Source: Liolophura sinensis (taxonomy: Eukaryota; Mollusca; Polyplacophora; Chitonida; Chitonidae). From it: a DNA stretch of 64,000 bases. Below the pieces are notes generated by a model that saw only the letters and a program-made list of their open reading frames with translations, had not been told where the DNA came from and made no database searches. Each line of letters opens with the position of its first letter. The stretch's first letter is position 1. The DNA is taken from positions 7,745,338 through 7,809,337 of the forward strand of contig NC_088302.1 in the NCBI RefSeq assembly GCF_032854445.1. The letters run 5' to 3'. The position numbers and the translations under genes were made by a program. Shown in pieces: positions 30,306-53,356 of this stretch.

Positions 30306-30490
30306 ATGGTTTGATTTATTTATTTACTTATTTATTTATTTATTTATTTGATTGGTGTTTTATGCCGTACTCAAGAATATTTCACTTATACGACGGCGGC
30401 CAACATTATGGTGGGTGGAAACCGGGCAGAGCCCGGGGGAAACCCACGACCATCCGCGGGTTGCTGCAAGACCTTCCCACGTACGACCGG
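30306..30490 (-). mobile_element. SINE-1, left half, split by the 17.4-kb insertion
   Basis: The long (TTTA)n tail, GTGTTTTATGCCGTACTCAA, AACCGGGCAGAGCCCGGGGG and the GACCTTCCCACGTACGACCGG part stop at 30490, where the TIR begins. The remainder (GACCGGAGAGGTAGCCAGC and the rest) resumes at 47931. Confidence 0.93.
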
Positions 30491-30952
30491 AGTAGTATAG
30501 AATGTGACTTAGGTGTCGCTTTGGGGAGCCGTTTTTTGTGGTTTTGGGGAGTCGTTTTTTGTGGTGATGTGGTGGTGACGTCACACCTGCCAGCCCGAAG
30601 GGCTGGTAGGTGTGACGTCACCCCTCAGTTGTGGGTTTTTCCCTCACCGCGGGGCGTATGTGTATAGACGAGTGTGATATGTTGTATAGTATAACAGTAT
30701 AGGGAAAAAAAGAGCGAAAAAAAAGAGGCAAAACGTCGGCTTGTAAAGTCGAGTGGGACAGCTCGAAAAGAGCTCCCGGGCGCCAAAACGAGCCAATGGG
30801 TGAGCTGGATTTGCCCCAAAACTGCCCAATGGGGGGCCCGCAAAACGGACCAATCAGCGTGCGAGAAGAGGTTACGTAAGAAAAAAACGAACCAATCAGC
30901 GCGTGGTGAATTTCCGCGTGGATAGGTAGTATAACCGTATAACAGTATAGGG
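30491..30952 (+). repeat. Left terminal inverted repeat
   Basis: Matches the reverse complement of 47468-47930 with roughly ten differences. From the tip inward: GTGACTTAGGTGTCGCTTTG, a CRE-bearing hairpin (30573-30622), a TATA-like TATAGTATAACAGTATA, a purine-rich run, AAAACGTCGGCTTGTAAAGT, then four CCAAT boxes (about 30793, 30826, 30850, 30892) and TTACGTAA (about 30872). Short ORFs across it are artefacts of GC-rich sequence. Confidence 0.93.
30573..30622. promoter_or_regulatory. Hairpin with two CRE (TGACGTCA) sites near the left tip
   Basis: Two arms of about 23 bases, GGTGACGTCACACCT...CCAGCCC and GGGCTGG...AGGTGTGACGTCACC, with one mismatch and a three-base loop. Each arm holds a full TGACGTCA palindrome, the site class bound by CREB/ATF factors. 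The same hairpin is at about 47801-47850. Confidence 0.8.
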
Positions 30953-32368
30953 CATGTAGGTGACATGTATAAGGGTGTACTCCCCAGCTCGCTGGCGCAG
31001 TGGCTGACGCAGTGGCTGGTTGACTGACTGGCAACAATGTATACAATGTACTCAAGGCGCAGCCGATCAAAAACCACGTGTCCAAACAAAAACCACGTGT
31101 CAAAACAAAGCACAGCTGACAACAGTGTTGGCCGGACTGCAGGCTGACTGGTGGGTAGGATCGCTCAGCGTGTCTTTGCAACACTGTTCGCCCAGGAAGG
31201 CTCACTGCTGCAGGCAGAGGGTCGGTGTTATGAACCGTAGACCCGGTCGGTGGGATTTTTTTTTGGGTGATCTGCCTGTCTGTCTACCTGCTGGTTGTGG
31301 TAGGGATGGATGGATCGACACCACACCCAAACATGCACGTACACTGGAGACTCTACTATACTATACTCTACTCTACTCTATACTATATATAGGCGGTGTA
31401 GTGGAATAGAGCACAGTAGAGTATAGGGGGAAAAAAAAAGAGAAAAAACTTGGATCAGAAAATCTCGAAGCTTATAAGAAACTTGGAGGAGATCAATGTG
31501 ATGGTATTTCACACATATTTTCAGCATCTATATTTTCACCAACATCCACATATTTAAGCAAGATATGTAACAGCCATTTCTTAAACGGTTAAATTCAATT
31601 ATTCTTTATCCACTAATCTTAACACACATATACACAAGACAACCAAATGACCATGAAGGAGAAAACAACTACCAGGTTATATTAAAAAAATTCTTTTTTC
31701 AATGTTTTATTCTTTTCTATCAAAAATCTGAAATACAAAAGGATATACCGAAACATAAACTTGCAGTACTTGCTATGGGGAACCTAACAAAGCCCATACG
31801 TGTAAATGATAAAAATGATATTGAAAATAAATGATAAATGGGTGTGCTGAACAGCTAATTTGACTTTGAAAAGACCGGTCAAAGCAGGTGTCAAAATGTC
31901 TGGCTCTATTAGTAGAGATTGCCAAATGACCATCGAAGAGACCTAGCCTCTGTATAAAGTTAAGTTCCTACAATAGCAGAAGGTATACATTCGAAAAATT
32001 AATCTGTTATTTTTAACAGAAAATCTGTGATCTGAATGATGCTGGAATGTATTGTGTTATTACAATATAATATTCTGCCATATTCAACATAATATACTGT
32101 TAGTCTAATGCTAATTTTATGTGGGATTAATAGAATACGTGTTTTATATTCATCTGATATTCATCAGTTTTCATCTGATATTTTACATCACATGTGACCC
32201 GTTACAACTCCGGGAACAAGAAGATTCGAAGAAGGAAGAAGTCATTTAACAAGTCCACTCTGATACGGGCATCTCGTCCAAGGTCACGCCCCTTTCTAGC
32301 CCAGGGTCATATTGGTTATCAGAAATGAGAGAAAAAAAACAGAAAAAAACCAGGTCATCCATGGCTTT
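30953..32368. other. Interior left flank of the element, no gene recognised
   Basis: The first 480 bp are GC-richer and element-like. Near 31345-31440 there is a TATAC/TACTC-rich run and TATAGGGGGAAAAAAAAAG, which resembles the inner TIR. From about 31440 the sequence becomes AT-rich, like host intergenic DNA, up to the RNA-binding gene. The change of composition may mark the cargo boundary. Confidence 0.5.
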
Positions 32369-35300
32369 TCACAGGATCTGTTGGAAGCGTTCCACAGGTG
32401 GGTCGGGGTGGTTGGCATAGCTCGGCTGGGTGTAAGGACATGGTGGGCTAATGAACTCTAGGGCTGCAGCACAAAACAATAAACTCTGACAATTCTAGTT
32501 ATGCAAATAGTTACTTTCCTGGCTAATATTCATTCAAAATATACTTGGGTAACCGCATGCGTGTATGTATGTGAGTATTTAACCATTCATTCTTCAAACG
32601 AGTTGCTAACACACACAATACCTGATGCATGTCACAAGTGCTTACATAACGGCAAACAGCTCAGCTATGAATAGTAATTTCCAGCAATTAAGTTTTTTGC
32701 AGCATGTCTTATTACATATGATCCAGTAAAGAAGTTTTTTTTATACTTTTCATATACTGTTACAAACATGTAACATGAGATAGCTCTTACTTTCTTAAAT
32801 CAAGAAGCAAAGCTGGTTCAGGAAAGAAACAAGACATCAAAGCATACAATGGCCACTTATTCAATGAGGTATCATAAGTGAAAAAGGGTAGAGCTTGGGC
32901 GGTGAAGCATTTGTTTGTCTTTCCTTTCTTATCTGGACACTAACTTTACCTTCAAGAGGCACACCTAACTGCATCAAAGTGTACTCTGCTGCAAAAACCT
33001 TTGCCCCCTCAACAGTAGGACACAGTTTATTTGGGGTAAATGGATTACGATTTGGAAACTGAGTACCGAGAGCTGGTATGGTGATCTGAAAGACAAATGT
33101 ACTTTACCATAGATTAACAATGTAAATGCCTAACATCAACTTCTACATATACTTATACATGTATAAACCCCAACCACGACATTCTTTTTTCGATTTACTT
33201 CAGATCAATTATTTTTATAAGATAATTTACTTCTTATTCTTTCTGGTACACATGGACATGATTAATTGTATAAATAAATAATAAAAAAAGTTACATTCCA
33301 GCAAAAAGAACTTGATTCTTATCTCTTCAAACAAGTTTCTTATCAACATTTTGTTGAAACCTATGGTAGTACCTTGTACAAAAAGAGCTCTAAGAGCTGT
33401 TGGGCACCACTTCCACCCCTTCCCATGAGAGAATGAAGCTGGTATACAGGACTTCCCCATCCATTCTTCTGACAAAGGTCATCGAGCACCTATAGTGAAC
33501 ATCGTTACATGCATGACATTCTTGATTTACTGAAGCCTCACTAGGGCAATCGGGCTATAAATTAAAGGTAATTAGTAAAACAAAAAATTCTTCCACAAAA
33601 CAAAATCATGGTCAAAGGTTCAACACAGAGCCTTGCATTATGACAACTTTCAATGATAACAAAACAGCCAATTTTTTAGCTATTAACACACCTGATTAAC
33701 GAAATTTAATTCAAAACTCATTACATGTATAGGAAATATTAGATAAGAATTAGTTTCTAAGTATGTTCCCTGTTACTTCAAAGTTTAAACAAACACCCAT
33801 CTTCAACGAAACTGAACTAACTCACCTTCTGGTTAATTGCACAATCGGTTCATGTCTTTTAGTACGGCGTAGGCAGATTATAGATTTTAAGACTGCGTAA
33901 TCCTTTAAGCATGCTTCAGAATAAGTTGCAATGCGCAACTTTTTAATGGGATATGGGACCGGAAACCTTCTGCATTGACAACGATACACACCTCCGCTGG
34001 ATGTTTCCTAAAGCCACACCCCCTCAGCATCATCCCTCGGCCTCGCACAGGGCTTCTGATGCCCATGGGACCTCGCCCTGCCAACGCCCTGCTAACAGTA
34101 CAAAAAAGCACAAATATTCCAGCTATTTCATGGTAAAAATTATGTGACTGAGCCTTCTTAAAGTTTCTTCTTCCTGCTTTTCCTCCTGAGATGTTCACAT
34201 AAAATCAAATATATTGAGCTATTCAGGTTTGGTTGATGAAACTTAATGCTTCTTTGTATACTTACATGTAAGAAGCTCATAAAACGTTTTTTTTGAGGAC
34301 ATTGCATGGATAACACATAAATGCAACTTCTTTCACGTCAAATGACTCTATCAACCACAATGGTAAAACCACTAATATGGTAGTGTACCTTTCCTACATG
34401 TATGCTGTTGAATGGAAAGCTACAGAGTGACAATTAAAGAATATAGGTCACAGGTGGTACGAAGTTCACATTAATTCTTGGCAAAAAGCAAGCCCCTACC
34501 ATTCAATAAAATCGCCTGTTTTTCAATAAAGCTATGCCTTGCACAGTCTTGCAAATATTTCTGCTCCGTGTGAAGCACCTTCCAACTGAAATCCGTCATT
34601 ACCTCATTTTGGATTTCAGTTGCCAAAGTAGACTTACCCATGTCATTTTTCTAGTTCTCACTCTGTACTCTGTATCCATTAGCATATCAGCAGGAGAGCT
34701 ACAATACTGTACTTTGTAAAAACCACTTGCATATGCTTATTTACAGTTACAGTTATTACAGACAAATCATAAGGTAAAATTTAATCTTAGGTTATCTAAG
34801 ATTTCATCATAGATGATCACAACTGAAATGATTTAAAACCAAAGACAAATATCCTGTTCCTGGTCTGAAGCACACAAATGACAGAGCATCTGACACTTCT
34901 GAGAACCCTGATATTAAACAGACAAACTGGACACACACGGTGGAATATGACAACCTATGCTCTTAATTCCGCAAATATTGTTCTAAGCTAACTGATTTTT
35001 ATAAAAATTCCAAGAATACAAGTCTATTCTGACTGCCAGATCATCTGCTGTGCTGGATTCTCATCTGTATTCTTATATCGGGTGAACAGAGTTGTGGATT
35101 TCAGGCCAAAATAGTTCTTACCTTGCGGGTGGTGGAGACATCGGGTTGTAATACAATGGAGGCGAGTAACTAGGATCATAGCCATAGCCCTGAAAAATTT
35201 GTCACAGTATCAAGTACACTTGTCATACAACCAAAGCATGCATAACCCCCCTACCTTAACATACGAGGAACTCTTACCCTAACATAACAGAGCCCATGAC

Positions 35301-38300
35301 CTATAAATTCATGTACAAATCCAGGTCTTACTCCAATTTCCTCCATCCATAAACCTGATCGTGGTGGAATAATGTGACAATTCTTGAATATAGTATTATA
35401 CACTGATTAAAAAAAAAGTTATTATTAAAGATTTTTAGCATGTAGTTCTAATCATTTTTTAATCAACGGCCTGAAAGGCTAAGGCATTATACTACACATA
35501 TGAGGCCTTCAATATTTCTACACACTGGAAAATTTCAACATCATAAGCCATCAGTGGCATTCCCTACCCTTGCATACCGGATTGGAAACCCCTATGCTTA
35601 CATACCAGAAACTCTTATGCTGACATATGAGAACCCCTTACCCTTCCACTCGTGGCCCAGGTGAGTATAATTACTTGTGTAGTTCTGAGTGGATTGTCTC
35701 CCTAATAGTTAGTTTCTCTACATTGTGAAGGGGAATATACCTTCAATGGTTGACACAACAAATAATGTTATCCTACCACATGAGGAACTCTTACCCTGAC
35801 AGGTGATACTTCTTTCTGCTTCCAAGATTCCAACGCTTCCGGGCCTCTGTTGTATGCTCTATCAACCTCACCCAAGTGGCAGTCCTGATTAGCCTGCAAT
35901 AAAGAATTTTCATCAGTAGTAAAATTCAATTATTTACCTGATATAAATATATATAAATAATTTGGTTTTTATATGCAAAGCTTTACCCAGATATATGAGA
36001 ACCCCCTACCTTAACATATGAGGAACTCTTACCCTGACGTAACAGAGCCCACTACCCTAACATGCGAGGAACTCTTACCCTGACATAACAGAGCCCACTA
36101 CCCCGACATATGAGGAACTCTTACCCTGACATATGAGAACCTCCTACCCAGATATATGAGAACCCCCTACAGATATATGAGAACAACCTACCTTAACATA
36201 CGAGGAACTCTTACCCTGACATAACAGAACCCCCTAGCCTACCACATGAGGAACTCTTACCCTGACAGATGATACTTCTTTCTGCTTCCAAGATTCCAAC
36301 GCTTCCTGGCCTCTGTTGTATGCTCTATCAACCTCACCCAAGTGGCAGTCCAAGGCCTTCAATATTTCTACACACTGGAAAATTTCAACATCATAAGCCA
36401 TCAGTGGCATTCCCTACCCTTGCATACCGGATCTGAAACCCCTATGCTTACATACCAGAAACTCTTATGCTGACATATGAGAACCCCTTACCCTTCCACT
36501 CGTGGCCCAGGTGAGTATAATTACTTGTGTAGTTCTGAGTGGATTGTCTCCCTAATAGTTAGTTTCTCTTCATTGTGAAGGGGAATATACCTTCAATGGT
36601 TGACACAACAAATAATGTTATCCTACCACATGAGGAACTCTTACCCTGACAGATGATACTTCTTTCTGCTTCCAAGATTTCAACGCTTCCGAGCCTCTGT
36701 TGTATGCTCTATCAACCTCACCCAAGTGTCGGTTCTGATTAACCCGCAATAAAGAATTTTCATCAGTAGTAAAATTCAATTATTTACCTGATATAAATAT
36801 ATATAAATAATTTGGTTTTTATATGCAAAGCTTACTTCACACATACACGACAGATGAGTTTACAATGGTGAAAGAAAGCTGATGGGGGAAAAATGTGGAC
36901 AGGTCCCGGTTTCCGACCAAATACCTTCCACAAACTCTCAATTTGAAAACATTTGAACTCTTCCAACTTAACACAGTTTACTCCACATACTATGTTGCAA
37001 ACAAACTTAACCTATGGAAGAGGATGATCGCTGGGCTGTCCTGAATTACACATTTGAGACGATTTTCACGATGTGGCAGCAACATTGACCAAATGATTTC
37101 TTACCTGCTCTCTTCCTTTTGCCCATGCAACCTCAATGTAAGCACCTTCAACATTCATTCCTAGAGAGAAATATACATGACTTATTATATAACGCCTTCT
37201 CACCTTGATCTTCCTTTAATTTTATTTCTTGAAAGAATGAGGACGTAGTACAAATGCTACACATCAGTTAAAAAAGTGTTCCAGATACAGTCTACCTAGA
37301 GTTTCTCCCAAAGAAAACTTCTTATTTTCTCAAAAAATTCCCGGCAAAATGGTCCCGGGATCTTGGGTTCAATATTCAGCCTATTACATGTAACTGTTGA
37401 AACAACTTCCCTCTTTTAAACATTTGATCATTTAATGTTCAACAGCTTCTTTTCATGCTGAATGATTTATTGATTGGCCCGTTTTTACGCTGTACTCAAG
37501 AATATTTCACTTATACGACGGTGATCAGCATTATAGCATGAGTAAACCAGGCAGAGCCTGGTGGAAACCCACAACCATTCACAGGTTGCTGGCAGACCTT
37601 CCCATCCATGTTGAATGAGGGGTGATATTAAGTTAATAATAAGCTACCATAAAAGCCAATTTATACAGAAATTTATCCAAACAAATATTCTAGAGAATGC
37701 CCACACCTTATGTTTTGAAGTGTGAATTTATACTGTATGTGCTCTTCTGTAAATATATGTAAGTCTGTCCCATAAATGTGAGCCATTTCCTGTACGTAGT
37801 TGGAGTATCAAACATCCTATAGGCAAGCGATGCGTCAGTTATTCACTGTTTCATCTTAATTACTTGAGTTAGCATGTTTTCCCAATATTCTCCCTTAGAT
37901 GTTGGTGGATATTCTATCATGTAATTTTCTGTAAACATCAATCAAGTGGAAAAACTAGTTAAAACATACTAATGTGCCACACGCGACTGACAAACGAAAA
38001 TGAACTTTTACTTATCAGAAACAGAACTATCCGAATGGAAATATATCACACTCTATAAATGCACACAAAAACTACATTCGCCTACCGATAGAAAAAATAT
38101 ACTTCCGTTAATGCATTTGTATTTATCCAAAACCAATCAACACAACTCCAAAATAAATAATTTTTCTCACCATTAAGTTTAGCCATGGCCTTGATAGCAG
38201 CATCTTTGTCGCTAAAACGAATGAATGCATAATCTCTTATCTTCTTTACTCTTCCCACAGCGTTGTCTCTTCCCACAACTTGACTGCACAGCTTTCTAAT

Positions 38301-39294
38301 TTTGTCTTCTGTAGTTGTCGACATAAGGTTCCCCACGTGCAAAACCACCTTCTGTAATACAAATATGCACAACATAAATATTATTCCAGTCATACAAATA
38401 TGCACAATATTAATGTAAAAGATGACGACGCATCAGTGCTTTTCAGCCATAAGTGACTATATTAATTATCACCACAGCCTCCCATACAAAAGAAATCACT
38501 TGTTGCAAGAAATGTTGCGTGCGCGCGCGCACACCACCCTCTCATGACAGAAAATGCAACAAATGCTGCACGCGCGCACACCACCTTCTCGTGACGGAAA
38601 ATGAAAGAGCAGACGATAAGAAATTGCAAGAAGTTACGCGACATTTTACACATATCCACCCACACAAAATGCCCCTCTGATACAAAAAATTTTAGTTCAA
38701 TTATAACTTTTCAAATAACGGCTTACATAAAGGTCAAATTTGTTTGGACTGTGGTACCTACTCGTGAATTTTACAACTAACCAACCGATATTTCCGACGT
38801 CTGGTGCCGTCTACATTGGCAATTAAATGTGTTTTAATTTGCAACGAAGAGACAACCAAAAAAGTTTCTATAGTGGAAATTACATGACTTACAGAAGAGT
38901 TGCGAACACACAAGAGCTGGCCTTTACGAATTTCGTAGTTGTGAAGCTCCTTTACCGCTTGATTCGCGTGTTCTTTGTTAGTGTATGTAACGAATCCATA
39001 TCCTCTATGGGGTCCAAAGCGGCGGTTCGTTACGAGTTTCAGTTCGTAAATCTTTCCTATCTTCTCAAATACTGGAACGAGCTCGTCTTCGTAACAGTCT
39101 TTTGGAATACCTCCGACGAAAATTCCACAATCCTTTAAAGGAGCCCGGCTTTCCCAGTCGGGAGGTGGACCGCCGTACTTTCTTTCCCGTTTTTCTCGCC
39201 GTATGGTGTATCCTGTTCTCGCCGTAAGGTTCAGCAAGGCTTCGTTTGGCTCCCGGGTCACACGACGTGGCAAAGCCTCCTCCGCGGACGCCAT
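32369..39294 (-). CDS. RNA-binding protein of the A1CF/RBM46/RBM47/DND1 family lacking RRM2 (nine exons, 417 aa)
   Basis: Exons from the 5' end: 38893-39294, 38171-38351, 37105-37160, 35795-35893, 35122-35189, 33992-34091, 33373-33489, 32950-33085 and 32369-32463 (stop 32369-32371). All phases agree. Residues 36-50 carry the family signature RKYGGPPPDW. RRM1 is at about 56-131 (IFVGGI; HRGYGFVTY). A second RRM at about 135-212 (VVLHVGNLMSTTTED; RDYAFIRF) aligns with RRM3 of RBM46, not RRM2. Then come a linker, an RG-rich exon (SPVRGRGMMLRG) and a DND1-type double-stranded-RNA-binding domain at about 303-387 (LCQKNGWGSPVYQL; NKLCPTVEGAKVFAAEYTL). Family members bind mRNAs and recruit editing or decay machinery, RBM46 and DND1 in germ cells. 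Which paralog this is cannot be settled by eye. It lies wholly between the two TIRs. Confidence 0.88.
35503..36833. repeat. Duplicated intron-exon segment (481 bp, offset 850 bp) creating extra exon-4 copies
   Basis: 35503-35983 and 36353-36833 are nearly identical and each contains exon 4 of the RNA-binding gene (35795-35893 and 36645-36743). A third, truncated exon copy lies at about 36258-36351. Only the first copy keeps the acceptor (TTGCAG on the minus strand). The second has GCGG instead of GCAG and a few missense changes. The third runs directly into the next duplicate and has no acceptor. Confidence 0.85.
35984..36260. repeat. Intronic minisatellite, about 44 bp, whose unit contains the exon-4 donor
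   Basis: Units such as CATATGAGGAACTCTTACCC followed by TGACATAACAGAGCCCACTA. On the minus strand each unit reads CAGGGTAAGAGTTCCTC-like, the same as the real exon-4 donor at 35794/35795. Related units occur near 35225-35300. Seven or eight donor-like motifs therefore lie in or beside this intron. Confidence 0.8.
37462..37605 (-). mobile_element. SINE-1 copy, head missing
   Basis: GATTTATTGATTGGCCCGTT, ACGCTGTACTCAAGAATATT, then CACAGGTTGCTGGCAGACC. Diverged. It lies in the intron between exons 3 and 4 of the RNA-binding gene, showing that the cargo carries ordinary host repeats. Confidence 0.8.
38511..38612. repeat. Two-copy CG-rich repeat in intron 1 of the RNA-binding gene
   Basis: CGCGCGCACACCACC..CTC(A/G)TGAC(A/G)GAAAATG occurs twice, at about 38523 and 38571. 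The intron (38352-38892) is where the exon(s) for RRM2 would be expected, and no RRM2-like coding sequence is present in it. Confidence 0.7.
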
Positions 39295-39381
39295 ACCTAC
39301 ACCCTACTCCACCCTGCTGGTCCCACTGCTGACGAACTAGAAGTAGGCAAACTGGACTTTGCCACGCACGTGCGTGGACTT
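39295..39381 (-). promoter_or_regulatory. 5' region of the RNA-binding gene with a 16-bp palindromic E-box
   Basis: CCACGCACGTGCGTGG at 39362-39377 is a perfect palindrome containing CACGTG flanked by GC. It lies about 70-85 bases upstream of the ATG at 39294 in a GC-rich patch. This is a plausible core-promoter or bHLH/HIF-type site. Function is inferred from motif and position. Confidence 0.5.
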
Positions 39382-39863
39382 AGAAGAGCCCTACAGCGCC
39401 ATCTATGATGTCCAATAATTATTGTTTTATTCAAATTTACATAGAAAAGGCATCAAATCCAGAGAATATGACCGCACAAACGTGTAAGGCAACATATAGG
39501 TAAAAAAATAAGCTGATAACTTGGAGGGGCACGGTTATGTAGCACTCGCTGTGCCACTGCGAAAGCAGTTCACCCGTGAGTCTCAAGTATCGAAAATTGA
39601 ACTGTTCATAGTACGAAATGTGAGAAGAGCCCTACAGCGCCATCTATGATGTCCAATAATTATTGTTTTATTCCATTGTACATAGAAAAGACACCAAATC
39701 CAAAGAATATGACCACAGAAACGTGTAAGGCAACATATAGGTGAAAAAATAAGCTGATAACTTGGAGGCATACGGTTATGCAGCACTCGCTGTGCCACTG
39801 CGAAAAGCAGTTCACCTGCGAGTCTCAAGTATCGAAAATTGAACCATTCATAGTACGAAATAT
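39382..39863. repeat. 241-bp tandem duplication upstream of the RNA-binding gene
   Basis: AGAAGAGCCCTACAGCGCCA starts both copies, at 39382 and 39623, and each ends in TCATAGTACGAAAT. Identity is high. It begins directly beside the palindromic E-box, so one copy may contain promoter sequence. Confidence 0.88.
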
Positions 39864-40086
39864 GGCATGTGTTTATACTTCAGTGAGTGTTCGGCTATAC
39901 CAACTATCTGGGTGATTGAAAATGACCCGAATCCAATCTACTATCGCTGACATCGATTTGACAACAGGCATTGTCCTGTGTAATATTCAAAAATAGAAAA
40001 AACAAATTTTGTTTTCGCGTGGTTCTAGCTTCTGCATTGTCTTCTAGAACAGCTTATCATGTTCCAGGCAAACTTTCGCACTGCGA

Positions 40087-40165
40087 CGTCCAAGACAGAC
40101 CAATGAGCGCGACAAGGAGTAAAACGTCGGCTTGTAAAGTCGAGTGGAGCAGCTCCAACAGCTCC
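40087..40165 (+). repeat. Small TIR-like block
   Basis: AGACCAATGAGCG, then TAAAACGTCGGCTTGTAAAG and TCGAGTGGAGCAGCTC match the inner part of the element's TIR, in the orientation of the left TIR. It directly precedes the transplanted last-exon copy at 40180. Confidence 0.7.
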
Positions 40166-40177
40166 ATGCTATGCCAG

Positions 40178-40251
40178 CTATGCCGACCACCCCGACCCAC
40201 CTGTGGAACGCTTCCAACAGATCATGTGATCAACCATGGATGACCTACGGT
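40178..40251 (+). pseudogene. Copy of the last exon and 3' UTR start of the RNA-binding gene, opposite orientation
   Basis: CAGCTATGCCGACCACCCCG and ACCTGTGGAACGCTTCCAAC, then CAGATCATGTGA and CCATGGATGACCT, match minus-strand 32345-32420 with few differences, including the stop region and some bases beyond it. There is no intron sequence in the match, but the piece lies within a single exon, so it does not prove an mRNA origin. Confidence 0.85.
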
Positions 40252-41158
40252 ACATATATATTGATCCGGCATTTCAATCTTTCAGACATGGATATACATG
40301 TATAACTTAGATTAGGGCCTGGAAACTAAACACCTGCCTAAACATGGCTTGCATGAGAAAGGTTTGTATTATAATGTGTTATAATAAAGACCGTATATTT
40401 TGACAAATAGAGTTAATTTTTTTTCTTTTTTTCATTTTGAAATTTCAGTTTAATTTTCTATCATCTGTATCGATCAATTATACTGCTGGTTTAATATACA
40501 GAACCTGTTAAGTATACATGACACGTCTGAGTAAAAGTCAGACTTACCTGGTGACCACACCCGCCTTGATTACTATAGGCTTGATTCTGGGATCGACCAT
40601 GGCTGTAAGGAATCAGTGACAAATCCGAACGCTATCTGAAGACGCCGCGTTTGGGCTTACTCTTCAGGAGATGCACTTACAATTTCTGCTTTTCTGACTG
40701 CTGTTGTTGTAGCGATGAAAGCGGCTCCTGCAAGATGGCAACAGTACCGAACAGCAGACGTTCATGATAAGACCGGAAGTACATCAACAACAGACGGAGC
40801 AGTTACCTCCCGTATTCCATATTATACTGATAGAGTAAAGCGTCCGCAGAGGCCCACTGCATCCACACGTGAACAAATACATATACATGGGGAATGAAAA
40901 CCATTACTGAAAACAGAGCTAAAAAAATACTGATTTCTGGACTTCTGATAACGTTTGTTTCACCCATAGAGCACACATAAAAGTGTACTTGTTTGGGTGT
41001 TTATTAAGTCTCGGATTAAGGCAGTCTATCTTAATCCCAGATTGAACTCACTTGAACTCTTTGATAATTCCTGGTACAAATTATCCAGTTTCTGAGTTAA
41101 GAAAACAAGTTTTTAGAACTATAATCTATATGTTAATCTACTACATGTATATGACATG
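40252..41158. other. Element interior without a recognised gene
   Basis: AT-rich, with one 60-codon ORF (40715-40897, Arg/Thr-rich) that has no recognisable motif. I see no repeats I can name. Confidence 0.4.
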
Positions 41159-41383
41159 TGACCCAGGAACCTCTCCACACTGGGGTCGCTGTGAGTCCAG
41201 TTCATGCTGGCTTCCTTTCGTGCCGTACATGGGAAGGTCTGTCAGCAACCTGCCCATGGTTGTGGGTGTCCTCTGGGTTATGCACAAATTCCTCCCACCA
41301 AAATGTTGGTCGCCTTTGTATAAGTAAACATTTCTTGAGTATGACGTACACCACCATTGCCCAATCAAATCAATAAATGAATA
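41159..41383 (+). mobile_element. SINE-1 copy, plus orientation
   Basis: GTCGCTGTGAGTCCAGTTCA (box-B side of the head), TTCCTCCCACCAAAATGTTG, TTCTTGAGTATGACGTACAC, and a CAATCAAATCAATAAATGAA tail. The tip of the head is missing. Confidence 0.8.
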
Positions 41384-41516
41384 GTAAGCAAGGCAGGGAT
41401 GTCCATACCACGACCATGTTAAAACTTCCAAAGATAATTTGTTCATTCCTGTAATGTTGTGTTGGTGTTAAAAAAGTGTTCATAATAATAAAATAAAAAA
41501 TAAAAAAAGCACTTAC

Positions 41517-41927
41517 CTGGCCCTGTTCCCCACGTTGATGGACACGCCAGTCCCACAATCGGTAAAAAGTTTTACCACAGGCAATCGCACACACGCTCGT
41601 TGTTTTTTTCCATGCTCCCGCTGGCAGCGCACCAAATGCTCCCGTCGGGAAAACGCCCGCCCGCAGGTTGGGCAGGTGAACCCTTTTTTCTGGGGTTGGT
41701 GGTGTGCATGGTGGTGAGGGGTGGTGGTGCGTCTGCTGGTGACGCAGCCAGTCGTCCCACCGACTGAAGTCCCTGGCGCACATCATGCAGGTAAACGGCT
41801 TCTTCTTCTTCCCTTCACCTGTATGATTTCCATCTCCATCTCCATCTCCAACCATTCTCGCGCGCGGATAGGTCCGTTTTGGGGGCCGTCCATTGGTCCG
41901 TTTTGGGGGCAAATCCCGCTCACCCAT
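41517..41927 (-). pseudogene. C2H2 zinc-finger ORF of the element, broken
   Basis: A clear C2H2 finger reads FTCMMCARDFSRWDDWLRH and continues QQTHH (Cys-x2-Cys, twelve residues, His-x3-His). It is preceded by a basic KKKKP stretch and followed by Pro/His-rich spacer and a further Cys/His-bearing segment near the end of the ORF. The open frame ends at a donor-like CAG|GTAAGT. The N-terminal part overlaps a TIR-like block. The gene looks broken, so it is given as a fossil of the element rather than an active gene. Confidence 0.55.
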
Positions 41928-42152
41928 TGGTTCGTTTTGGGCGACAAAGAGCTCTTTTCGAGCTGTCCCACTCGACTTTACAAGCCGACGTTTTGCCTCT
42001 TTTTTTTCACTCCCACTACCACCACTGCCCCTATACTATACTCTATTATACTACACTCCACTCTAGTATACACACCCCGTCGTGGAAAAAACCCACCACC
42101 ACCACTACCTGACACACACCTGACACGTCACAGGTGTGACGTCACTCCCAGC
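41866..42152. repeat. Diverged TIR-like block inside the element
   Basis: Same order as the right TIR: GGTCCGTTTTGG and CACCCATTGGTTCG, GACTTTACAAGCCGACGTTT, a TATACTATACTCTATTATAC tract, GGAAAAAACCCACCACC and GTGTGACGTCACTCCC. Divergence is much higher than between the two outer TIRs. It may be the end of an older related element. Confidence 0.75.
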
Positions 42153-43374
42153 CATGCGCAAATAAGGCAAACACAGCAGAGCAGATTAAAATGACTGCAT
42201 CTTGGGAAGGACAGTCCAAATTACCGAAAAGCTCCTGATTAACCTTTGAATGACGAAGGCAATTCAAGAATGAATAACCATTTATGCGCATGTCTCATAA
42301 ATTCTTGAATAATGTTGAGTCGTACATGTAGCGATTGGACCATATGTGATATAGGGGACAACAACAATAAATCTGTACTTCCACTTCACTGCCAAATGTT
42401 AACAAGAATGTGAAATAACCCACCTTCCAGCTACAGGTTTTCAAATGACTTAATGCTTGAATTAAAAAGTATACATATGCAAAAATAAAACAAGCATCAT
42501 TACGTTGTCTTTTTTACCTGAGACACGCGTAGTGATATCACCCATGACCTAACCACTCCCATCACCATCCGCCCACGCTAAATAGTCCCCCTTACATAAC
42601 TCGTTCTCGCGCACTTATCTACATGGAGTAGAAAAAAACACATCCACATGTCACCTACATAATTACACGCAGTAGACCATATCACTTCAACGAGTCGTCT
42701 ATAACCTAAAAATTTTTTTATACATAATACATAGGAACCATCCAGATAGGTAGGTAGCCGTGGCTTGTCAGCTGTGGTTGATCATGCGTGGTTAATCACA
42801 GCCCGACTGGTTGGTAACACTGTATACAAGACCGTCTACGGTGAACAGCACGGTCGGTTGGATGCTATGCCTGCCTGGCTGACAACAATGTTTAGGCAGG
42901 CTGGCAGGCTGGTCGTCGCTCAACAACCGTGCGGCTCGCCGGACCGATTTCGTTGACGTCCGCGCTCCGCCACAGGCCAGGTGGCACGTTTGCCGGATTC
43001 TCTGGTCGGGGGAGACCCCTAACATATACACTACAACGTGTGCGTTACACTGAATCCTTATCCATTAAAATCCATATCACTGCTTTGATATAGGATATAC
43101 TCCTACTGTGGCTTGTTGCAAGCAAAAGTGTAAGTATATCTGTCAAAAAAAATATCTATTTCCCAGCAACCCTTATCAAGGCTAAAACCCAACAGCTCTT
43201 GTCAGGGCTAATCATTTACCTATCATTTACCACCATGTATCGGAGTAGGCGGGGGCCTGGGAATGTGGTGTGAATGTCTGTGGTGAAGTTTGGAGCAGCT
43301 TGTCGTCTATGGCTAATAAAAAAAAAAAATGCACCAACCTGTATGGGTTCTCAAAAAATACGACGCGCCATTTT
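42153..43374. other. Element interior, no gene recognised
   Basis: 42750-43000 is GC-richer and resembles 31000-31200 in style (CTGGCTGACAACAATGT versus CTGACTGGCAACAATGT). It may be a further shared piece of the element. No ORF with motif content. Confidence 0.4.
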
Positions 43375-43640
43375 TTTTTGTACCTGAGACACGCGTAGTG
43401 ATACGTAACCTCACCACTCCCATCTCCATCGCGCACGCGAAATAGTCCCCTTACAAAAGCGAAAATAGTCCCCTTACATAACCGATTGGTCCATTTTTTT
43501 CTTACGTAACCCCCTTCTCGCGCCGATTGGTCTGTTTTGCGGGCCCTCCATTGGTTCGTTATGGGGTAAATCCCGTTCACCCATTGGTCCGTTTTTGGCG
43601 ACCAAGAGCTGGCCCACTCAACTTTACAAGCCTATTAGTG
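43375..43640. repeat. Second diverged TIR-like block
   Basis: GCGCCGATTGGTCTGTTTTG, CACCCATTGGTCCG and CAACTTTACAAGCC follow the CCAAT-box half of the TIR in the right-TIR orientation, preceded by CTTACGTAACCCCCTTCTCG. ACCTGAGACACGCGTAGTGATA occurs here (43383) and at about 42519, so a longer unit is duplicated. Confidence 0.7.
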
Positions 43641-43699
43641 TGCGAGCCAAACATATGATGTCTGACAGTGTGCTGATATAACACAAAACTTGTTTAGAT

Positions 43700-43765
43700 T
43701 TCGACCGCGGCCGGACAGGAAGCAGCATGAGCTGGACTTGAACTCTCAGTGATTGCATTCGATAT
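43700..43765 (-). repeat. SINE-1 head-side fragment
   Basis: GACAGGAAGCAGCATGAGCT then GGACTTGAACTCTCAGTGAT matches the box-B side of SINE-1 on the minus strand. No tail. Confidence 0.55.
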
Positions 43766-44419
43766 CTATTTAACAAATGTTTTCTGTATTGTTTTATTTT
43801 CACGTGACAATTGCGTTAGATAGTCCATTTGCTTTTTTTGTTTCAGATTTAATGCCGAACGCAACAATACTGTACATATGTACGATGTTGGGTTGGAAGT
43901 AAACCACCGGCGTTCGTTAAGTCACCCACAGGCTTTCCCGCACACGACCGGCAGATATTGGTAAAAGGCTAGTGATCCATACGGTCATACATCATTTGAA
44001 GAACACAAGTCATAAGTAGAAAACTATTCGAAATTTTACGTGTAAATATGTCCCTTCACCTGGTTGCAGTTAGCTATACAAGACATATCATTATAAAATA
44101 AGTTTCGAAATAATAAATTCACTTTAATAATATACTACTACAGTAAAATCTGCACACTCATAACCTGATATTAAAACAAATGGAATTCATATGAAGAATT
44201 TTACTAATGCGACTTATCTGCATGCATCATTCAAAAGCCAGTTTAAAGACTTAAGAGTCTAATAACCGTTAACACTCTTTGTGTGACTGAAAAGAGTGGA
44301 AATGTGGGATAAACTGTGCCTTTTTGTCCTGTTGTTAAACATTTTCATGGCAGAAAATGACCCTGAACAAAATAAGGTATCTACTCTAATAAAACCGAAT
44401 TGAGATACATGTGAAAAGT

Positions 44420-44945
44420 TGAATTACGCCCAAACTAATCTTGTTGTCAGTCACTTCTTCATTGCCACGGTTGTCAGTCACTTCTTCATTGTCACGGCTA
44501 TAACCCTTGTTTCCAGTTACTTCCTTATTGTCACGGTCATAACCCTTCTGATCAGACAACTTTTCTTGACGGGAGTTATAACCCTTGTGGTCAGGCAATT
44601 CTTTCTGCCTGCTTTCATAACTCATGTGATTAGACAACTCTTCTTGGCGTGGGGTTATAACCCTTGTGGTCAGGCAATTCTTTCTGCCTGCTTTCATAAC
44701 CCTTCTGATCAGACAACTCTTCTTGGCGGTGGTTATAAACCTTGTGGTCAGGCAATTCTTTTTGCCTGGTATCATAACCATTCTTGGCGGTGATCATAAC
44801 GATTGCGATCAGGCAGTTCGTTATACCCGCAGTTTTAATCCTTGTCATCACATAAATCTTCCTGGTCATGGTTATAACCCGCATGATGACGCAGATCTTC
44901 TTGGCGGTGGTTACAATCCTTGTAATCAGGCAATTCCTTATAACC
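44420..44945. repeat. Minisatellite, unit about 39 bp (paired into about 78 bp)
   Basis: Alternating units with GGTTATAACCCTTGTGGTCA and CATAACCCTTCTGATCAGAC. On the minus strand they translate as a repeated 13-residue pattern like GYNSRQEELSDQK, which gives open frames of 110-130 codons. Repeat-derived ORFs of this kind are usually not genes, and no independent support is seen. Confidence 0.85.
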
Positions 44946-45015
44946 ATGATTAAAAGAAAACACAAAAAAACCGGGGATGGATTCCATAGTAAGGGAACAG
45001 TATTATTAGTATTCT

Positions 45016-45283
45016 TTACAGCAATGTACAGGTCTGTAACACGGAGCGTTGATAGACCTCTGTTAACGTGGGACGAGCAATCTCTACGTAATACGCTTGA
45101 ATAGGTCGGGAATCCTCGACATGCTGACAGACGTCTTCAGTGTACGCTTGCAGCACCTGCAGTCGTCCCCCGTTCACCCTACCATCCGCAAACATACTAT
45201 GAAGTACACTTGTGTAGCTTTGCAGGTCGGTGACGACAGCGACCCAGTCTTTCCATTGCGGTGTTGTACGGAGCTTCGCCAGG
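45016..45283 (-). other. Coding-like open segment without its own ATG near the start (89 codons)
   Basis: An open frame runs from an acceptor-like TTTTCTAG at 45284-45291 to a TAA at 45016-45018. The residues look protein-like (PQWKDWVAVVTDLQSY, EDVCQHVEDSRPIQAYYVEI). Composition is GC-rich like the 45747-47045 ORF and unlike the neighbouring AT-rich DNA. Probably a fossil piece of an element gene. Family not recognised. Confidence 0.4.
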
Positions 45284-45360
45284 CTAGAAAAGACATAAAG
45301 AAGACACCGTCGTCATTCTAATGCCGTCACCGACCGAACCCTAGCCACATCAATCAAAAC

Positions 45361-45391
45361 GATAGATAGATAGATAGATAGATAGATAGAC
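45361..45391. repeat. GATA microsatellite
   Basis: About eight tandem GATA units. Confidence 0.98.
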
Positions 45392-45541
45392 TATCCCTTC
45401 ACCAACAGGTAAAGACAATAACCAACACCAAAGACCAGGGTCGTCAACCTGAAAACTTTTTTTATTTATTTTTTCGAACTCGAACAGTGAACAAACGAAT
45501 GAACGAATAAATACATGCTGTAAGTGTCCATTATTTTGGTG

Positions 45542-45638
45542 TTACGGTGAGAAATGTCTCGTGATGACGATTGTATCGCCAATATGAAAGTCCTGACACT
45601 GGTCAATGTTTATAACGTGCACCACCCTAGTCATCTCC
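45542..45638 (-). other. Short coding-like open segment (about 32 codons)
   Basis: Open from an acceptor-like TTTTTTTACAG (45639-45649) to a TAA at 45542-45544. The residues include VVHVINIDQCQDFHIGDTIV, which is protein-like. It lies just downstream, on the same strand, of the PC4-like ORF, which has a donor-like GTGAGT overlapping its stop. Alternative 3' ends by splicing are conceivable but not shown. Confidence 0.35.
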
Positions 45639-45746
45639 CTGTAAAAAAACACACATAGGTAAAAACAAAACGAGAATGTATGAAGGGAAAAAAAACAAAC
45701 AAAAAAAAAGCTGGGTAAGGGTGGTGCAGTTAAAACAAAAACACAC

Positions 45747-47045
45747 TCACTCGGTCATCGTAGCCTGGGTGGTCTGGGTAGCCTGGGTAGGCTGGTTGGC
45801 TTGGTTGTTAGGCCGGATTGTAGGCTGCTCGTCAGGTGCTGAGAGGTTGTTGGCTGTCGTCAAATACTCCACGTACATCTGGGCGAATGCTGGGTTCGAT
45901 TTGTTGATCGGTGTCTCATTTAAAAACTGCCGCAGTTGGTCTTTCACACTCTTCTCCACAGCCCACGGGAGGGAGGCTGCCTTACGAGCCTGGCGCATGA
46001 ACTTGACCAACACAGGTCCCTCTTTCAGGTAACGCATACGGGCCTCGTCCGCGATACTCAGGGTCAGCTCTCGGTTCTCCAGCAAGGGAGGCCGGGGAGG
46101 AGATGGATCACTCGCGGTGTTGGTGGATTGTCGACCGTACACATCGCGCTGTAACTTGCGGAGGTGGGGTTGGAGAGCTACATCGTAAGCTTGCCACAGC
46201 AAGGCTGTTAGCGCCGTCTCAAGCTCAGGGTTTAACGGGTCCGCCTTTTCCACCTTTTCCACTGGGATGTCGGGGATGGTGGGGGTTGCAGTAGCAGTCT
46301 CCTCATCAGCAGTCGTCACAGCAGCCGTCACAGCAGCGGTTAAAGCAGCACTCATAGCAGCATTCACCTCACCTCCAGTCCCTCCAGTTTCTCCAGTCTC
46401 TCCAGTCTCTTCAGTCTTCCCCTCCTCTGTTTCCATCATCTCCATCCCCGGCTCTTGGGGCTCTTGGGGGTCTTGGGGCTCTTGGATGTCGTCGTTATCG
46501 CCAGCCTCGATCACCATCAGCACCAAGGCGTCGATGTCGGGGATGGCCTGGACTAGTTTTTGCCAGTAAGTCCAGTACTTGAGCGTGATACCCTCACTCG
46601 TCGGGTAGAGTCGACCGTTCGGCTGGTAGGGTCGCCATTTCTTCACATGAACGTACAGGGCACCCTCCGAGTTCCTCAGCGTGGACAGAAAGTACCCGTT
46701 GGAGAGTGGCTCCCGCACAGGTAAACCGACCTCAGGTAGATCAGCAGCCAGGGTCTTGAGCCGAGTCCACCCCACCCCGTCAAGCCTGACGCGTTTGGGT
46801 GGAGCGTTCGGGTCTGTCGGTGATTGGCAAATCTCAATCGTCTCGTCTCTACACACCCCCACCCACAGCCAGGAGGCCAGCTGTAATTTGGCGAGAACCT
46901 CGCTGGGTAAGGGCAGGCATACCTTCCTCTTCTTCTCGGGAGGTTGTTGTTGTTCGGCTATGGTGGATAGCCGGGCAGGTACAGACGCTGAGCGTTTCAT
47001 CCTGATGGCAGCATGCAGGGGGTTCACGGTGGTGGAGCGTTTCAT
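45747..47045 (-). CDS. Element ORF (432 aa) with two PC4-like ssDNA-binding domains
   Basis: Open throughout. Residues 36-42 (PEKKRKV) are an SV40-type nuclear signal. Residues about 115-176 match the PC4/SUB1 C-terminal domain well: GALYVHVKKW, GRLYPTSEGITL and WQKLVQAIPDID line up with the strand-strand-helix plan VLIDIREYW, KPGRKGISL and WSQLKEQISDID. Residues about 57-106 (WVGVCRDETIEIC; KRVRLDGVGWTRLKTL) read as a second, more diverged copy. A Glu/Gly/Ala-rich low-complexity linker and a helical C-terminal third follow. PC4 proteins bind single-stranded DNA and act in transcription and replication; a replication or late-transcription role here is inference. It starts about 200 bp inside the right TIR repeat, in the inward direction, so the TIR is its likely promoter. 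Confidence 0.65.
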   Translation of the reverse strand: MKRSTTVNPLHAAIRMKRSASVPARLSTIAEQQQPPEKKRKVCLPLPSEVLAKLQLASWLWVGVCRDETIEICQSPTDPNAPPKRVRLDGVGWTRLKTLAADLPEVGLPVREPLSNGYFLSTLRNSEGALYVHVKKWRPYQPNGRLYPTSEGITLKYWTYWQKLVQAIPDIDALVLMVIEAGDNDDIQEPQDPQEPQEPGMEMMETEEGKTEETGETGETGGTGGEVNAAMSAALTAAVTAAVTTADEETATATPTIPDIPVEKVEKADPLNPELETALTALLWQAYDVALQPHLRKLQRDVYGRQSTNTASDPSPPRPPLLENRELTLSIADEARMRYLKEGPVLVKFMRQARKAASLPWAVEKSVKDQLRQFLNETPINKSNPAFAQMYVEYLTTANNLSAPDEQPTIRPNNQANQPTQATQTTQATMTE

Positions 47046-47051
47046 CTCGCC

Positions 47052-47105
47052 AGGTAGGTAGGTAGGTAGGCAGGTAGGTAGGTAGGTACAGGCAGGTAGG
47101 TAGGT
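47052..47105. repeat. GGTA/GGCA microsatellite
   Basis: Tandem GTAGGTAGGTAGGCAGGTAG-like units just upstream of the PC4-like ORF, in what would be its 5' UTR. Confidence 0.9.
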
Positions 47106-47250
47106 CGTGTAGCAGTCTCTTCTCTTCTCTTCTCGTCTCTCGGCAGGTCAGTAGGTCGGGTCGTCAGCAAGCAGGTCGGCAGGCAGTCAGGCCGGTAGAG
47201 CGTCAGGTGCGTCTGAGGCTGCCGGTCGCTGTCTTCACCGGCTTTTATCC

Positions 47251-47495
47251 TATCCACGCGGAAATTCACCACGCGCTGATTGGTTCGTTTTTTCTTACGT
47301 AACCTCTTCTCGCGCGCTGATTGGTCCGTTTTGCGGGCCTCCCATTGGGCCGTTTTGGGGCAAATCCGGCTCACCCATTGGTCCGTTTTGGCGCCAGGGA
47401 GCTCTTTTCGAGCTGTTTCACTCGACTTTACAAGCCGACGTTTTGCCTCTTTTTTTCTCTCTTTTTTCCCTATACTGTTATACGGTTATACTACC
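47251..47495. repeat. Extra copy of the inner TIR half (245-bp unit)
   Basis: TATCCACGCGGAAATTCACC starts at 47251 and again at 47496. The intervening 245 bp (CCAAT boxes, TTACGTAA, TACAAGCCGACGTTTTGCCT, CCCTATACTGTTATACGG) is repeated almost exactly. The left end has a single copy, so the duplication is right-end specific. Confidence 0.9.
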
Positions 47496-47930
47496 TATCC
47501 ACGCGGAAATTCACCACACGCTGATTGGTTCGTTTTTTTCTTACGTAACCTCTTCTCGCACGCTGATTGGTCCGTTTTGCGGGTCCCCCATTGGGCAGTT
47601 TGGGGGCAAATCCGGCTCACCCATTGGTCCGTTTTGGCGCCCGGGAGCTCTTTTCGAGCTGTCCCACTCGACTTTACAAGCCGACGTTTTGCCTCTTTTT
47701 TTCTCTCTTTTTTCCCTATACTGTTATACGGTTATACTATATCACACTCGTCTATACACACATACGCCCCGCGGTGAGGGAAAAACCCACAACTGAGAGG
47801 TGACGTCACACCTACCAGCCCTTCGGGCTGGCAGGTGTGACGTCACCACCACATCACCACAAAAAACGACTCCCCAAAACCACAAAAAACGGCTCCCCAA
47901 AGCGACACCTAAGTCACATTCTATACTACT
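47468..47930 (-). repeat. Right terminal inverted repeat
   Basis: Reverse complement of 30491-30952, ending CACATTCTATACTACT, followed by the target duplicate GACCGG. It contains the same CRE hairpin (47801-47850) and CCAAT-box array. Confidence 0.93.
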
Positions 47931-47993
47931 GACCGGAGAGGTAGCCAGCATGAGCGACCGCATTGGTGAGAGACTCCTGGGTCATGTATGGTT
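47931..47993 (-). mobile_element. SINE-1, right half of the split copy
   Basis: GACCGGAGAGGTAGCCAGCA and GACCGCATTGGTGAGAGACT followed by CCTGGGTCAT resume the SINE where 30490 stopped. A short internal deletion and loss of the head tip pre-date or follow the insertion. Confidence 0.88.
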
Positions 47994-52179: not shown

Positions 52180-53313
52180 TCAGTGTCGACCACCTTGTGT
52201 GGTTTTCTCCGTGACGAAGCTGGCGGTTTGCTCAACGACTGTCCTGTGGCCAGTTCTCAGTAACTTGTGAGTGACTTCTCTGACGAATGGAATTTTCCAG
52301 GCGTACACTACTGGGTTAATCACACTTTTAGCCAGGAACAGTGTCAGGAGAGACAATTTTAGCAGGAAGTGTCCCACAGTCAGCAATTCTTCCTGGTCCG
52401 TGAATGACACAATAAGTAGGTAGATGACGAGCGGGGTGTACATGATGACAAATGACGCTACGATCAGACTGACAGTCTTCAAGGCCTTAGCTTGAAGTGA
52501 TAAGTTGATGGCGCACTTCTGATCTGCGTGTGTGTCGCTTACAATCTTACAGATGTGGCTGCGGGCTAAGGCGTAGAGCTTCCAGAAAACACTCATCATG
52601 ATGACCATACAGATTAGGTAGATGCCCGAGAAAGCGCGCAGAGGCACAGAAGTGTACACCAACAGTAGATCGCAGGCTTGGAATGGAGGCAATGACGGCT
52701 GACCCATGACGGCGATGCTTACCAAAACAACACTCACGGTCCAAACCAAGAAAGAGACGAAGGCCACCTTAAGCGGGCCCATCACCCCTCGGTACTGGAA
52801 AGGTATCAGTTGAGAAAGGTAAGCATTGACCGGGAACAAGGTGGAGAGGAAAATGGACACGAACGCTAAACTGGCCTGAATTCCCATACCCGCGGTACAC
52901 TGACCGATGGATGTGCTGTCTGGCCGAATTAACAAAACACCATTGACTATCATGGAAATTGCCGAGAGACAATCGCAGCAGGCCATGTTCATGAGAAGGG
53001 TTCGGCATGGACGTGGTAGGTCCTTGGCTAACACAAGGCCCCGCAGAATCAGCGAGTTGATGACCATGGTGGGCAGTCCCAAACCAAACCATATCACAGT
53101 CCTAAAAATTGAAAACGCAAAAATAACATCGCTTTTGAAGAAGGTCGCGACCGTTTCTTCTTGCAGAGCTAGAGACGAAGAATTGGTTTGATTCATTTCA
53201 TACAGTTGTACTGCATGTACAACTCTCTCAGCCGAAACCCCGAACGACAATTCCGCCAGGAAATGTAGCGCTTGCTTTATAAATGACGGGAGAGACGATA
53301 GCGATCGCTGCAT
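52180..53313 (-). CDS. Class A (rhodopsin-like) GPCR, single exon, DRY motif replaced
   Basis: 377 aa with seven hydrophobic segments at about 68-94, 105-129, 139-165, 182-203, 218-248, 278-303 and 313-340. Class A marks are Asn in TM1 (VINSL), Asp in TM2 (ACCDCLS), Cys139 at the top of TM3 with Cys214 in loop 2, Trp in TM4, Pro in TM6 (MYTP in place of CWxP) and NPVVY in TM7. The DRY position at the end of TM3 reads NAY (PVNAYLSQLIPFQY). N-glycosylation sites are in NQTNSSS. The second Met, 39 residues in (53196), just before NQTNSSS, is a plausible alternative start since no signal peptide is needed. Ligand unknown. It is intronless, as in many lineage-expanded mollusc receptors. Confidence 0.9.
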   Translation of the reverse strand: MQRSLSSLPSFIKQALHFLAELSFGVSAERVVHAVQLYEMNQTNSSSLALQEETVATFFKSDVIFAFSIFRTVIWFGLGLPTMVINSLILRGLVLAKDLPRPCRTLLMNMACCDCLSAISMIVNGVLLIRPDSTSIGQCTAGMGIQASLAFVSIFLSTLFPVNAYLSQLIPFQYRGVMGPLKVAFVSFLVWTVSVVLVSIAVMGQPSLPPFQACDLLLVYTSVPLRAFSGIYLICMVIMMSVFWKLYALARSHICKIVSDTHADQKCAINLSLQAKALKTVSLIVASFVIMYTPLVIYLLIVSFTDQEELLTVGHFLLKLSLLTLFLAKSVINPVVYAWKIPFVREVTHKLLRTGHRTVVEQTASFVTEKTTQGGRH

Positions 53314-53356
53314 GTGGCCCTGTGAGATGACGTGTGCAAACCGCTGCCCGCTTTAT

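What the first reader, a model, noticed from the sequence alone, without database searches (positions are those of the whole stretch)
30491..47930. A Polinton-bounded segment that carries an intact, intron-containing host gene
One SINE is cut into 30306-30490 and 47931-47993. Between the halves lie 17.44 kb with matching TIRs, AG...CT tips and a 6-bp duplication GACCGG. Such ends are known for Polintons/Mavericks. In place of a recognisable polymerase, integrase or capsid set, the interior holds a nine-exon RNA-binding gene with its introns, SINEs and 5' region, plus element ORFs. If real, a very large virus-like DNA element has moved a whole host gene, introns included, which would be gene transduction at the DNA level. 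The competing reading is that host DNA entered an existing Polinton later.
Basis: partly seen in the sequence, partly recalled or inferred. Interest (0 to 1): 0.92.

Follow-up and report, generated by a model that had tools for sequence, protein, structure and literature searches.

The report
Virus-like transposon carrying a host gene
In a chiton genome, a 17.4 kb mobile element with Polinton-type ends sits inside a repeat it has split and carries a complete multi-exon RNA-binding gene whose relatives lie on several other chromosome scaffolds, so a virus-like element has probably moved a host gene together with its introns.

Summary
The window matches scaffold_4 of the chiton Liolophura (GCA_032854445.1). 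Element 30491-47930 has ~460-bp terminal inverted repeats (TIRs), AG...CT tips and a 6-bp duplication GACCGG that splits one SINE exactly. Its middle, 31450-40113, has host-like GC (38.5%; flank 38.7%; arms 49.9% and 46.4%) and holds an A1CF/RBM46-like gene identical to NCBI protein P0003: 11 coding exons (not nine), ten GT-AG introns, open frame. It lacks RRM2, which the scaffold_2 paralogue keeps. Twelve Liolophura proteins (window's included) form one clade spread over five scaffolds and an unplaced contig; the tree needs at least seven scaffold changes. One on scaffold_9 matches 484 of 485 residues. Five of the eleven others contain residues from introns of the window gene, so those are DNA-level copies; the two closest show none. 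The arms carry CCAAT-rich modules, a 417-aa ORF weakly like PC4, a C2H2 zinc-finger ORF and a weakly Bcl-2-like ORF; no polymerase, integrase or capsid matched in 48 ORFs. Most likely this is a non-autonomous Polinton-type element that acquired the gene and moved with it. Whether other copies lie between these TIRs was not testable: the genome search did not complete.

The parts
30327..30490 (+). 5' part of the interrupted SINE, ending in TSD copy 1 GACCGG (30485-30490)
47931..47985 (+). TSD copy 2 GACCGG (47931-47936) and 3' part of the same SINE
30491..30952 (+). left terminal inverted repeat, tip AGTAGTATAG
47468..47930 (-). right terminal inverted repeat
47249..47739 (-). two tandem 246-bp CCAAT-rich modules in and next to the right TIR, upstream of the PC4-like ORF; TATA-like GATAAAA at 47243-47249 (minus strand, read by eye)
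31450..40113 (.). segment of host composition (GC 38.5%) between element arms; left edge abuts a TIR-like A-rich motif (31420-31449), right edge a TIR-type module (40114)
32369..39294 (-). A1CF/RBM46-like gene, 11 coding exons: 39294-38893, 38351-38171, 37160-37105, 36734-36645, 36374-36261, 35893-35795, 35189-35122, 34091-33992, 33489-33373, 33085-32950, 32463-32369; RRM1, RRM3 and DND1-type dsRBD, no RRM2
35503..36833 (-). tandem-duplicated units, with three exons of 30-38 codons (HLGEVDRAYNRG repeat)
40114..40166 (+). fragment of the TIR-type module (AAAACGTCGGCTTGTAAAGTCGAGTGG)
40173..40247 (+). second, separate fragment of the last exon and start of the 3' UTR of an A1CF-like copy (92%), in opposite orientation
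41855..42099 (-). internal copy of the TIR module, upstream of the zinc-finger ORF
41373..41850 (-). C2H2 zinc-finger ORF; fingers fall in two frames, so frameshifted in this copy or in this assembly
43484..43632 (-). internal copy of the TIR module
45019..45312 (-). ORF with a weak Bcl-2/Mcl-1-like match (BH1 region, by recall)
45750..47000 (-). 417-aa element ORF with a weak PC4-like stretch; relatives P0001 (L. sinensis, 92%) and P0002 (source 'lgn', 46%)

Best explanation
A Polinton-type element that does not encode a recognisable polymerase or integrase took up an 8.7 kb piece of chiton DNA carrying an RRM2-less A1CF/RBM46-like gene, between its element arms and next to TIR-type modules. 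An integrase supplied in trans then moved the whole 17.4 kb unit into a SINE, making the 6-bp GACCGG duplication. Repeated moves of this kind have helped spread the gene family over several chromosome scaffolds. Shown: the single insertion with TIRs and TSD, the gene and its introns, the compositional mosaic, the dispersed family, and shared introns in five of its members. Inferred: that the gene was inside before the insertion, that integrase acted in trans, and that other copies travelled the same way.
For: TIRs, tips, 6-bp TSD and repaired SINE. 6 bp is the TSD length reported for Polintons (PMC10045372, passages). GC: left arm 49.9%, gene segment 38.5%, right arm 46.4%, flank 1-30490 38.7%. 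Gene identical to NCBI P0003 of Liolophura sinensis on a 58,388,612-bp contig, the length of scaffold_4. Twelve proteins form one clade (100/100) apart from RRM2-bearing P0009; RRM2 is absent in 11 of 11 testable models, P0013 starting too late to test. P0004 on scaffold_9 is identical at 484 of 485 aligned residues and P0006 on scaffold_7 at 458 of 464. At least seven scaffold changes are needed on the tree. Intron-derived 6-residue words occur in 5 of the 11 other members, with 0 in both controls. A second A1CF-like fragment lies next to a TIR-type module in the right arm. Another copy of the element ORF exists on a contig of scaffold_4's length (P0001).
Against: No flank of any other gene copy could be read: the genome search gave no answer in 16 tries, so it is not shown that other copies lie between these TIRs. 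The two closest copies, P0004 and P0006, show no intron-derived residues, so introns there are not shown; P0004 has three further repeat units. No integrase or polymerase was found. Only one annotated relative of the element ORF was found in L. sinensis. Five of the 12 sit on scaffold_11 and could be ordinary local duplicates. Several models are truncated. HiFi reads averaged 8,347 bp at 14x (PMC11068029), so an average read does not span the element.
Confidence: 0.7

Rival explanations
1. An ordinary Polinton-type element inserted into the SINE, and the gene segment entered it later at this site by duplication, ectopic recombination or gene conversion. The element never carried the gene.
For: The gene segment keeps host GC and lies as a block between element arms whose module sequence looks interrupted. 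No flank of another copy was read.
Against: The gene family is dispersed over five scaffolds and an unplaced contig, with DNA-level copying shown for five members, which needs a mover anyway. A second A1CF-like fragment in the same element suggests a longer association. No short inverted or direct repeat was found at the edges of the gene segment in the stretches compared.
Confidence: 0.2
2. The arrangement is an assembly chimera: two element copies were joined through shared TIR or module sequence.
For: Mean HiFi read 8,347 bp, 14x; the modules are repeated.
Against: Both SINE halves with matching TSDs lie in one scaffold in the right order, and the gene with all its introns is one contiguous annotated model.
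Confidence: 0.05
3. The gene did move with the element, but the element is not Polinton-type; it is another TIR element with 6-bp duplications. (This overlaps with the main reading; only the label differs.)
For: No Polinton hallmark gene matched in the 48 ORFs scanned.
Against: Long TIRs, a 17 kb unit, a 6-bp TSD and module-driven ORFs fit Polintons. The AG...CT tip rule is recalled, not looked up.
Confidence: 0.12

Closest known systems
Polinton/Maverick elements, including polinton-like viruses
   Same: TIRs of several hundred bp, 6-bp TSD, size in the 14-40 kb range given for polinton-like viruses (passages of PMC12220804; PMC10045372)
   Different: No PolB, rve integrase, ATPase, protease or capsid match in the ORFs scanned; half of the element is of host composition
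Nematode Mavericks carrying wosp and krma cargo genes (Widen et al.; seen only as a passage of meeting report PMC10680173)
   Same: Virus-like transposon with host-derived genes as cargo
   Different: There the cargo moved between nematode species; here the case is movement within one chiton genome of an RNA-binding gene, in an element where no core viral gene was found
Pack-MULEs and Helitrons that capture genes (passages of PMC6431247)
   Same: DNA transposons moving host sequence
   Different: That review calls acquisition of full-length genes by Helitrons, as by Pack-MULEs, exceptionally rare; here the whole coding region of an 11-exon gene is carried and the ends are Polinton-type

Membership tests
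Polinton/Maverick | long terminal inverted repeats | tested here: met
   ~460 bp, 96.1%
Polinton/Maverick | 6-bp target site duplication | tested here: met
   GACCGG within one SINE
Polinton/Maverick | 5'-AG ... CT-3' tips | tested here: met
   AGTAGT...ACTACT; that this marks the family is recalled
[quoted passage not shown]
   none by Pfam in 48 of 48 ORFs of 80 aa or more overlapping the element; shorter remnants not scanned
Polinton/Maverick | retroviral-type integrase | tested here: not met
   same scans
Polinton/Maverick | capsid, protease, packaging ATPase | tested here: not met
   same scans
Polinton/Maverick | autonomous relative with the same TIRs | not tested
   The genome search did not answer in 16 tries
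A1CF/RBM46/RBM47 (hnRNP R-like) gene family | RRM1, RRM2, RRM3 and DND1-type dsRBD | tested here: inconclusive
   two RRM_1 stretches and DND1_DSRM in P0003, three RRM_1 stretches in P0009; RRM2 lost

The most novel reading that the evidence does not exclude
The RRM2-less A1CF/RBM46-like gene has become a resident gene of a virus-like element lineage and has been kept open in several copies through at least seven moves between scaffolds. The element would be using a host RNA-binding protein, by recall of a germline kind, for its own expression or germline spread, while seeding a gene family so far seen only in Liolophura among the 120 best hits listed.
Probability: 0.3. Interest if true: 0.82.

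Novelty: new variant of a known kind. Interest (0 to 1): 0.65.

Why it matters
How whole host genes with introns are spread by DNA transposons is poorly documented; a review seen here calls acquisition of full-length genes by Helitrons, as by Pack-MULEs, exceptionally rare (PMC6431247, passages). A clean insertion of a complete 11-exon gene between Polinton-type TIRs, with near-identical protein copies on other scaffolds, makes gene transduction by virus-like elements directly testable in one published genome.

Tried and rejected
Retrocopy origin: rejected for the window gene (ten introns) and for five of the eleven other members, which contain intron-derived residues (P0007, P0012, P0013, P0015, P0016). 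The other six, P0004 and P0006 among them, showed none, so it is untested for them; both controls gave 0.

A separate transposon bringing the gene segment into the element was looked for at its edges: no shared exact word of 10 bases (31350-31650 against 39870-40260) or of 8 bases (31400-31500 against 40060-40180), direct or inverted, words of one or two letters left out.

Relatives of the element ORF in viral contigs: none by protein. An exact 27-base TIR module word gave none either. A protein search with residues 245-400 found only P0001; it did not list P0002, which one search had.

PC4 identity of the element ORF: Pfam found nothing at E up to 1. A two-sequence PC4 profile gave E 1.3e-5 in a database of two sequences, and hhalign gave probability 50. 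The shuffled control timed out with nothing printed. No PDB chain matched the ORF at E up to 10. It stays a weak hint. Bcl-2: Pfam E 0.0031, under the curated cut-off, and Mcl-1 chains from E 0.03; also weak. For scale, unrelated ORFs gave Pfam hits down to 0.012 and 0.036. No structure was predicted.

Literature: ten paper searches listed no paper whose title reports this case. None of them used the gene's name, so this is no proof of absence. Only listings and the passages cited were seen.

Full report
What was checked. The element ends are as described: inverted repeats 30491-30952 and 47468-47930, 96.1% identical, 8 substitutions in 457 aligned columns plus 11 gap columns. Each is flanked by GACCGG. 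Removing the element and one GACCGG restores a SINE that aligns straight through the junction with other copies in the window. This is one insertion event of a 17.44 kb unit.

Where it is. The gene in the window translates exactly to P0003, an NCBI protein of Liolophura sinensis on a contig of 58,388,612 bp. That is the length of scaffold_4 of the published chiton assembly, named L. japonica in the paper (PMC11068029, Table 3, seen as a passage). The paper reports a mean HiFi read of 8,347 bp at 14x (passages), so an average read does not span the element.

The gene. It has 11 coding exons on the minus strand, 39294 to 32369, ten GT-AG introns and an open frame of 485 codons. Pfam finds two RRM_1 stretches and a DND1-type dsRBD. 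P0009, on a contig of scaffold_2's length (82,493,220 bp), has three RRM_1 stretches. The window gene lacks RRM2 and has three tandem 30-38-codon exons that the P0009 model lacks.

The family. Among the 120 best of 1710 homologues listed, 14 rows are from L. sinensis: P0003-P0016. P0003 is the window's own, P0009 keeps RRM2, and P0014 was dropped as an isoform on the same scaffold as P0013. The other twelve rows (P0003-P0008, P0010-P0013, P0015, P0016) form one clade (100/100) sister to P0009; 4 of 13 inner branches of that tree reach the tool's star. Further copies below the listing cannot be excluded. RRM2 is absent in 11 of 11 testable models; P0013 begins too late to test. Parsimony, with the unplaced copy left free, needs at least seven scaffold changes. 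P0004 (scaffold_9) matches at 484 of 485 aligned residues and is 99 residues longer; P0006 (scaffold_7) matches at 458 of 464; the other nine at 78-91%. A systematic search for 6-residue words of the window's introns, absent from its exons, found them in 5 of the 11 other members (P0007, P0012, P0013, P0015, P0016) and none in P0004, P0005, P0006, P0008, P0010 or P0011; controls with reversed and opposite-strand introns gave 0. So DNA-level copying is shown for five members on scaffolds 5, 9 and 11, and not directly for the two closest copies.

The element. The arms have GC 49.9% and 46.4% and the gene segment 38.5%, like the flank at 38.7%. CCAAT/ATTGG density is 8.7 per kb in the left TIR and 11.7 in 47249-47930, against 1.5 in the gene segment and 2.1 in the window. 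Modules like the TIR recur at 41855-42099, 43484-43632 and 40114-40161. Element ORFs are a 417-aa ORF with a weak PC4-like stretch, a C2H2 zinc-finger ORF split over two frames and an ORF weakly like Bcl-2/Mcl-1; the first two lie directly downstream of such modules. A close relative of the 417-aa ORF is annotated on a contig of scaffold_4's length (P0001, 95% over residues 245-400); it differs in sequence, so it is another locus. A distant one comes from a 2,317-bp contig of source 'lgn' without organism name (P0002; that lgn means Logan is recalled). No polymerase, integrase or capsid family matched in the 48 ORFs of 80 aa or more.

Junctions. On the left the gene segment follows a TIR-like A-rich motif ending at 31449, a weak match in low-complexity sequence. 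On the right it meets a TIR-type module at 40114, followed at 40173-40247 by a second last-exon fragment of an A1CF-like gene in the opposite orientation. So A1CF-derived DNA entered this element lineage at least twice, or was rearranged inside it.

Interpretation. The simplest account is that a non-autonomous Polinton-type element carries the gene and moved with it into the SINE, and that this element family helped spread the gene. The step not shown is that other copies share the TIRs: the genome search did not complete. Precedent exists for host-derived cargo in nematode Mavericks (PMC10680173, passage), so this is a new variant of a known kind.

Noticed in passing
window 52180-53352 (-): Uninterrupted 390-aa ORF matching rhodopsin-type 7TM receptors (Pfam 7tm_1 E 7.9e-16).
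   Followed up: partly
window 18362-19138: Repetitive stretch open on both strands (ORFs of 258 and 197 aa); probably a satellite, not a gene.
   Followed up: no
window 35503-36833 and proteins P0003, P0004, P0006, P0010: Exons encoding a ~33-residue HLGEVDRAYNRG repeat are tandem-duplicated inside the gene and vary in number between copies.
   Followed up: partly
window 40173-40247: A second fragment of the last exon of an A1CF-like copy, ending in FQQIM like P0010 and P0013 rather than FQQIL, next to a TIR-type module.
   Followed up: partly
window 30574-30622 and 47799-47847: 49-bp near-palindrome with TGACGTCA towards both ends, close to each element tip.
   Followed up: no
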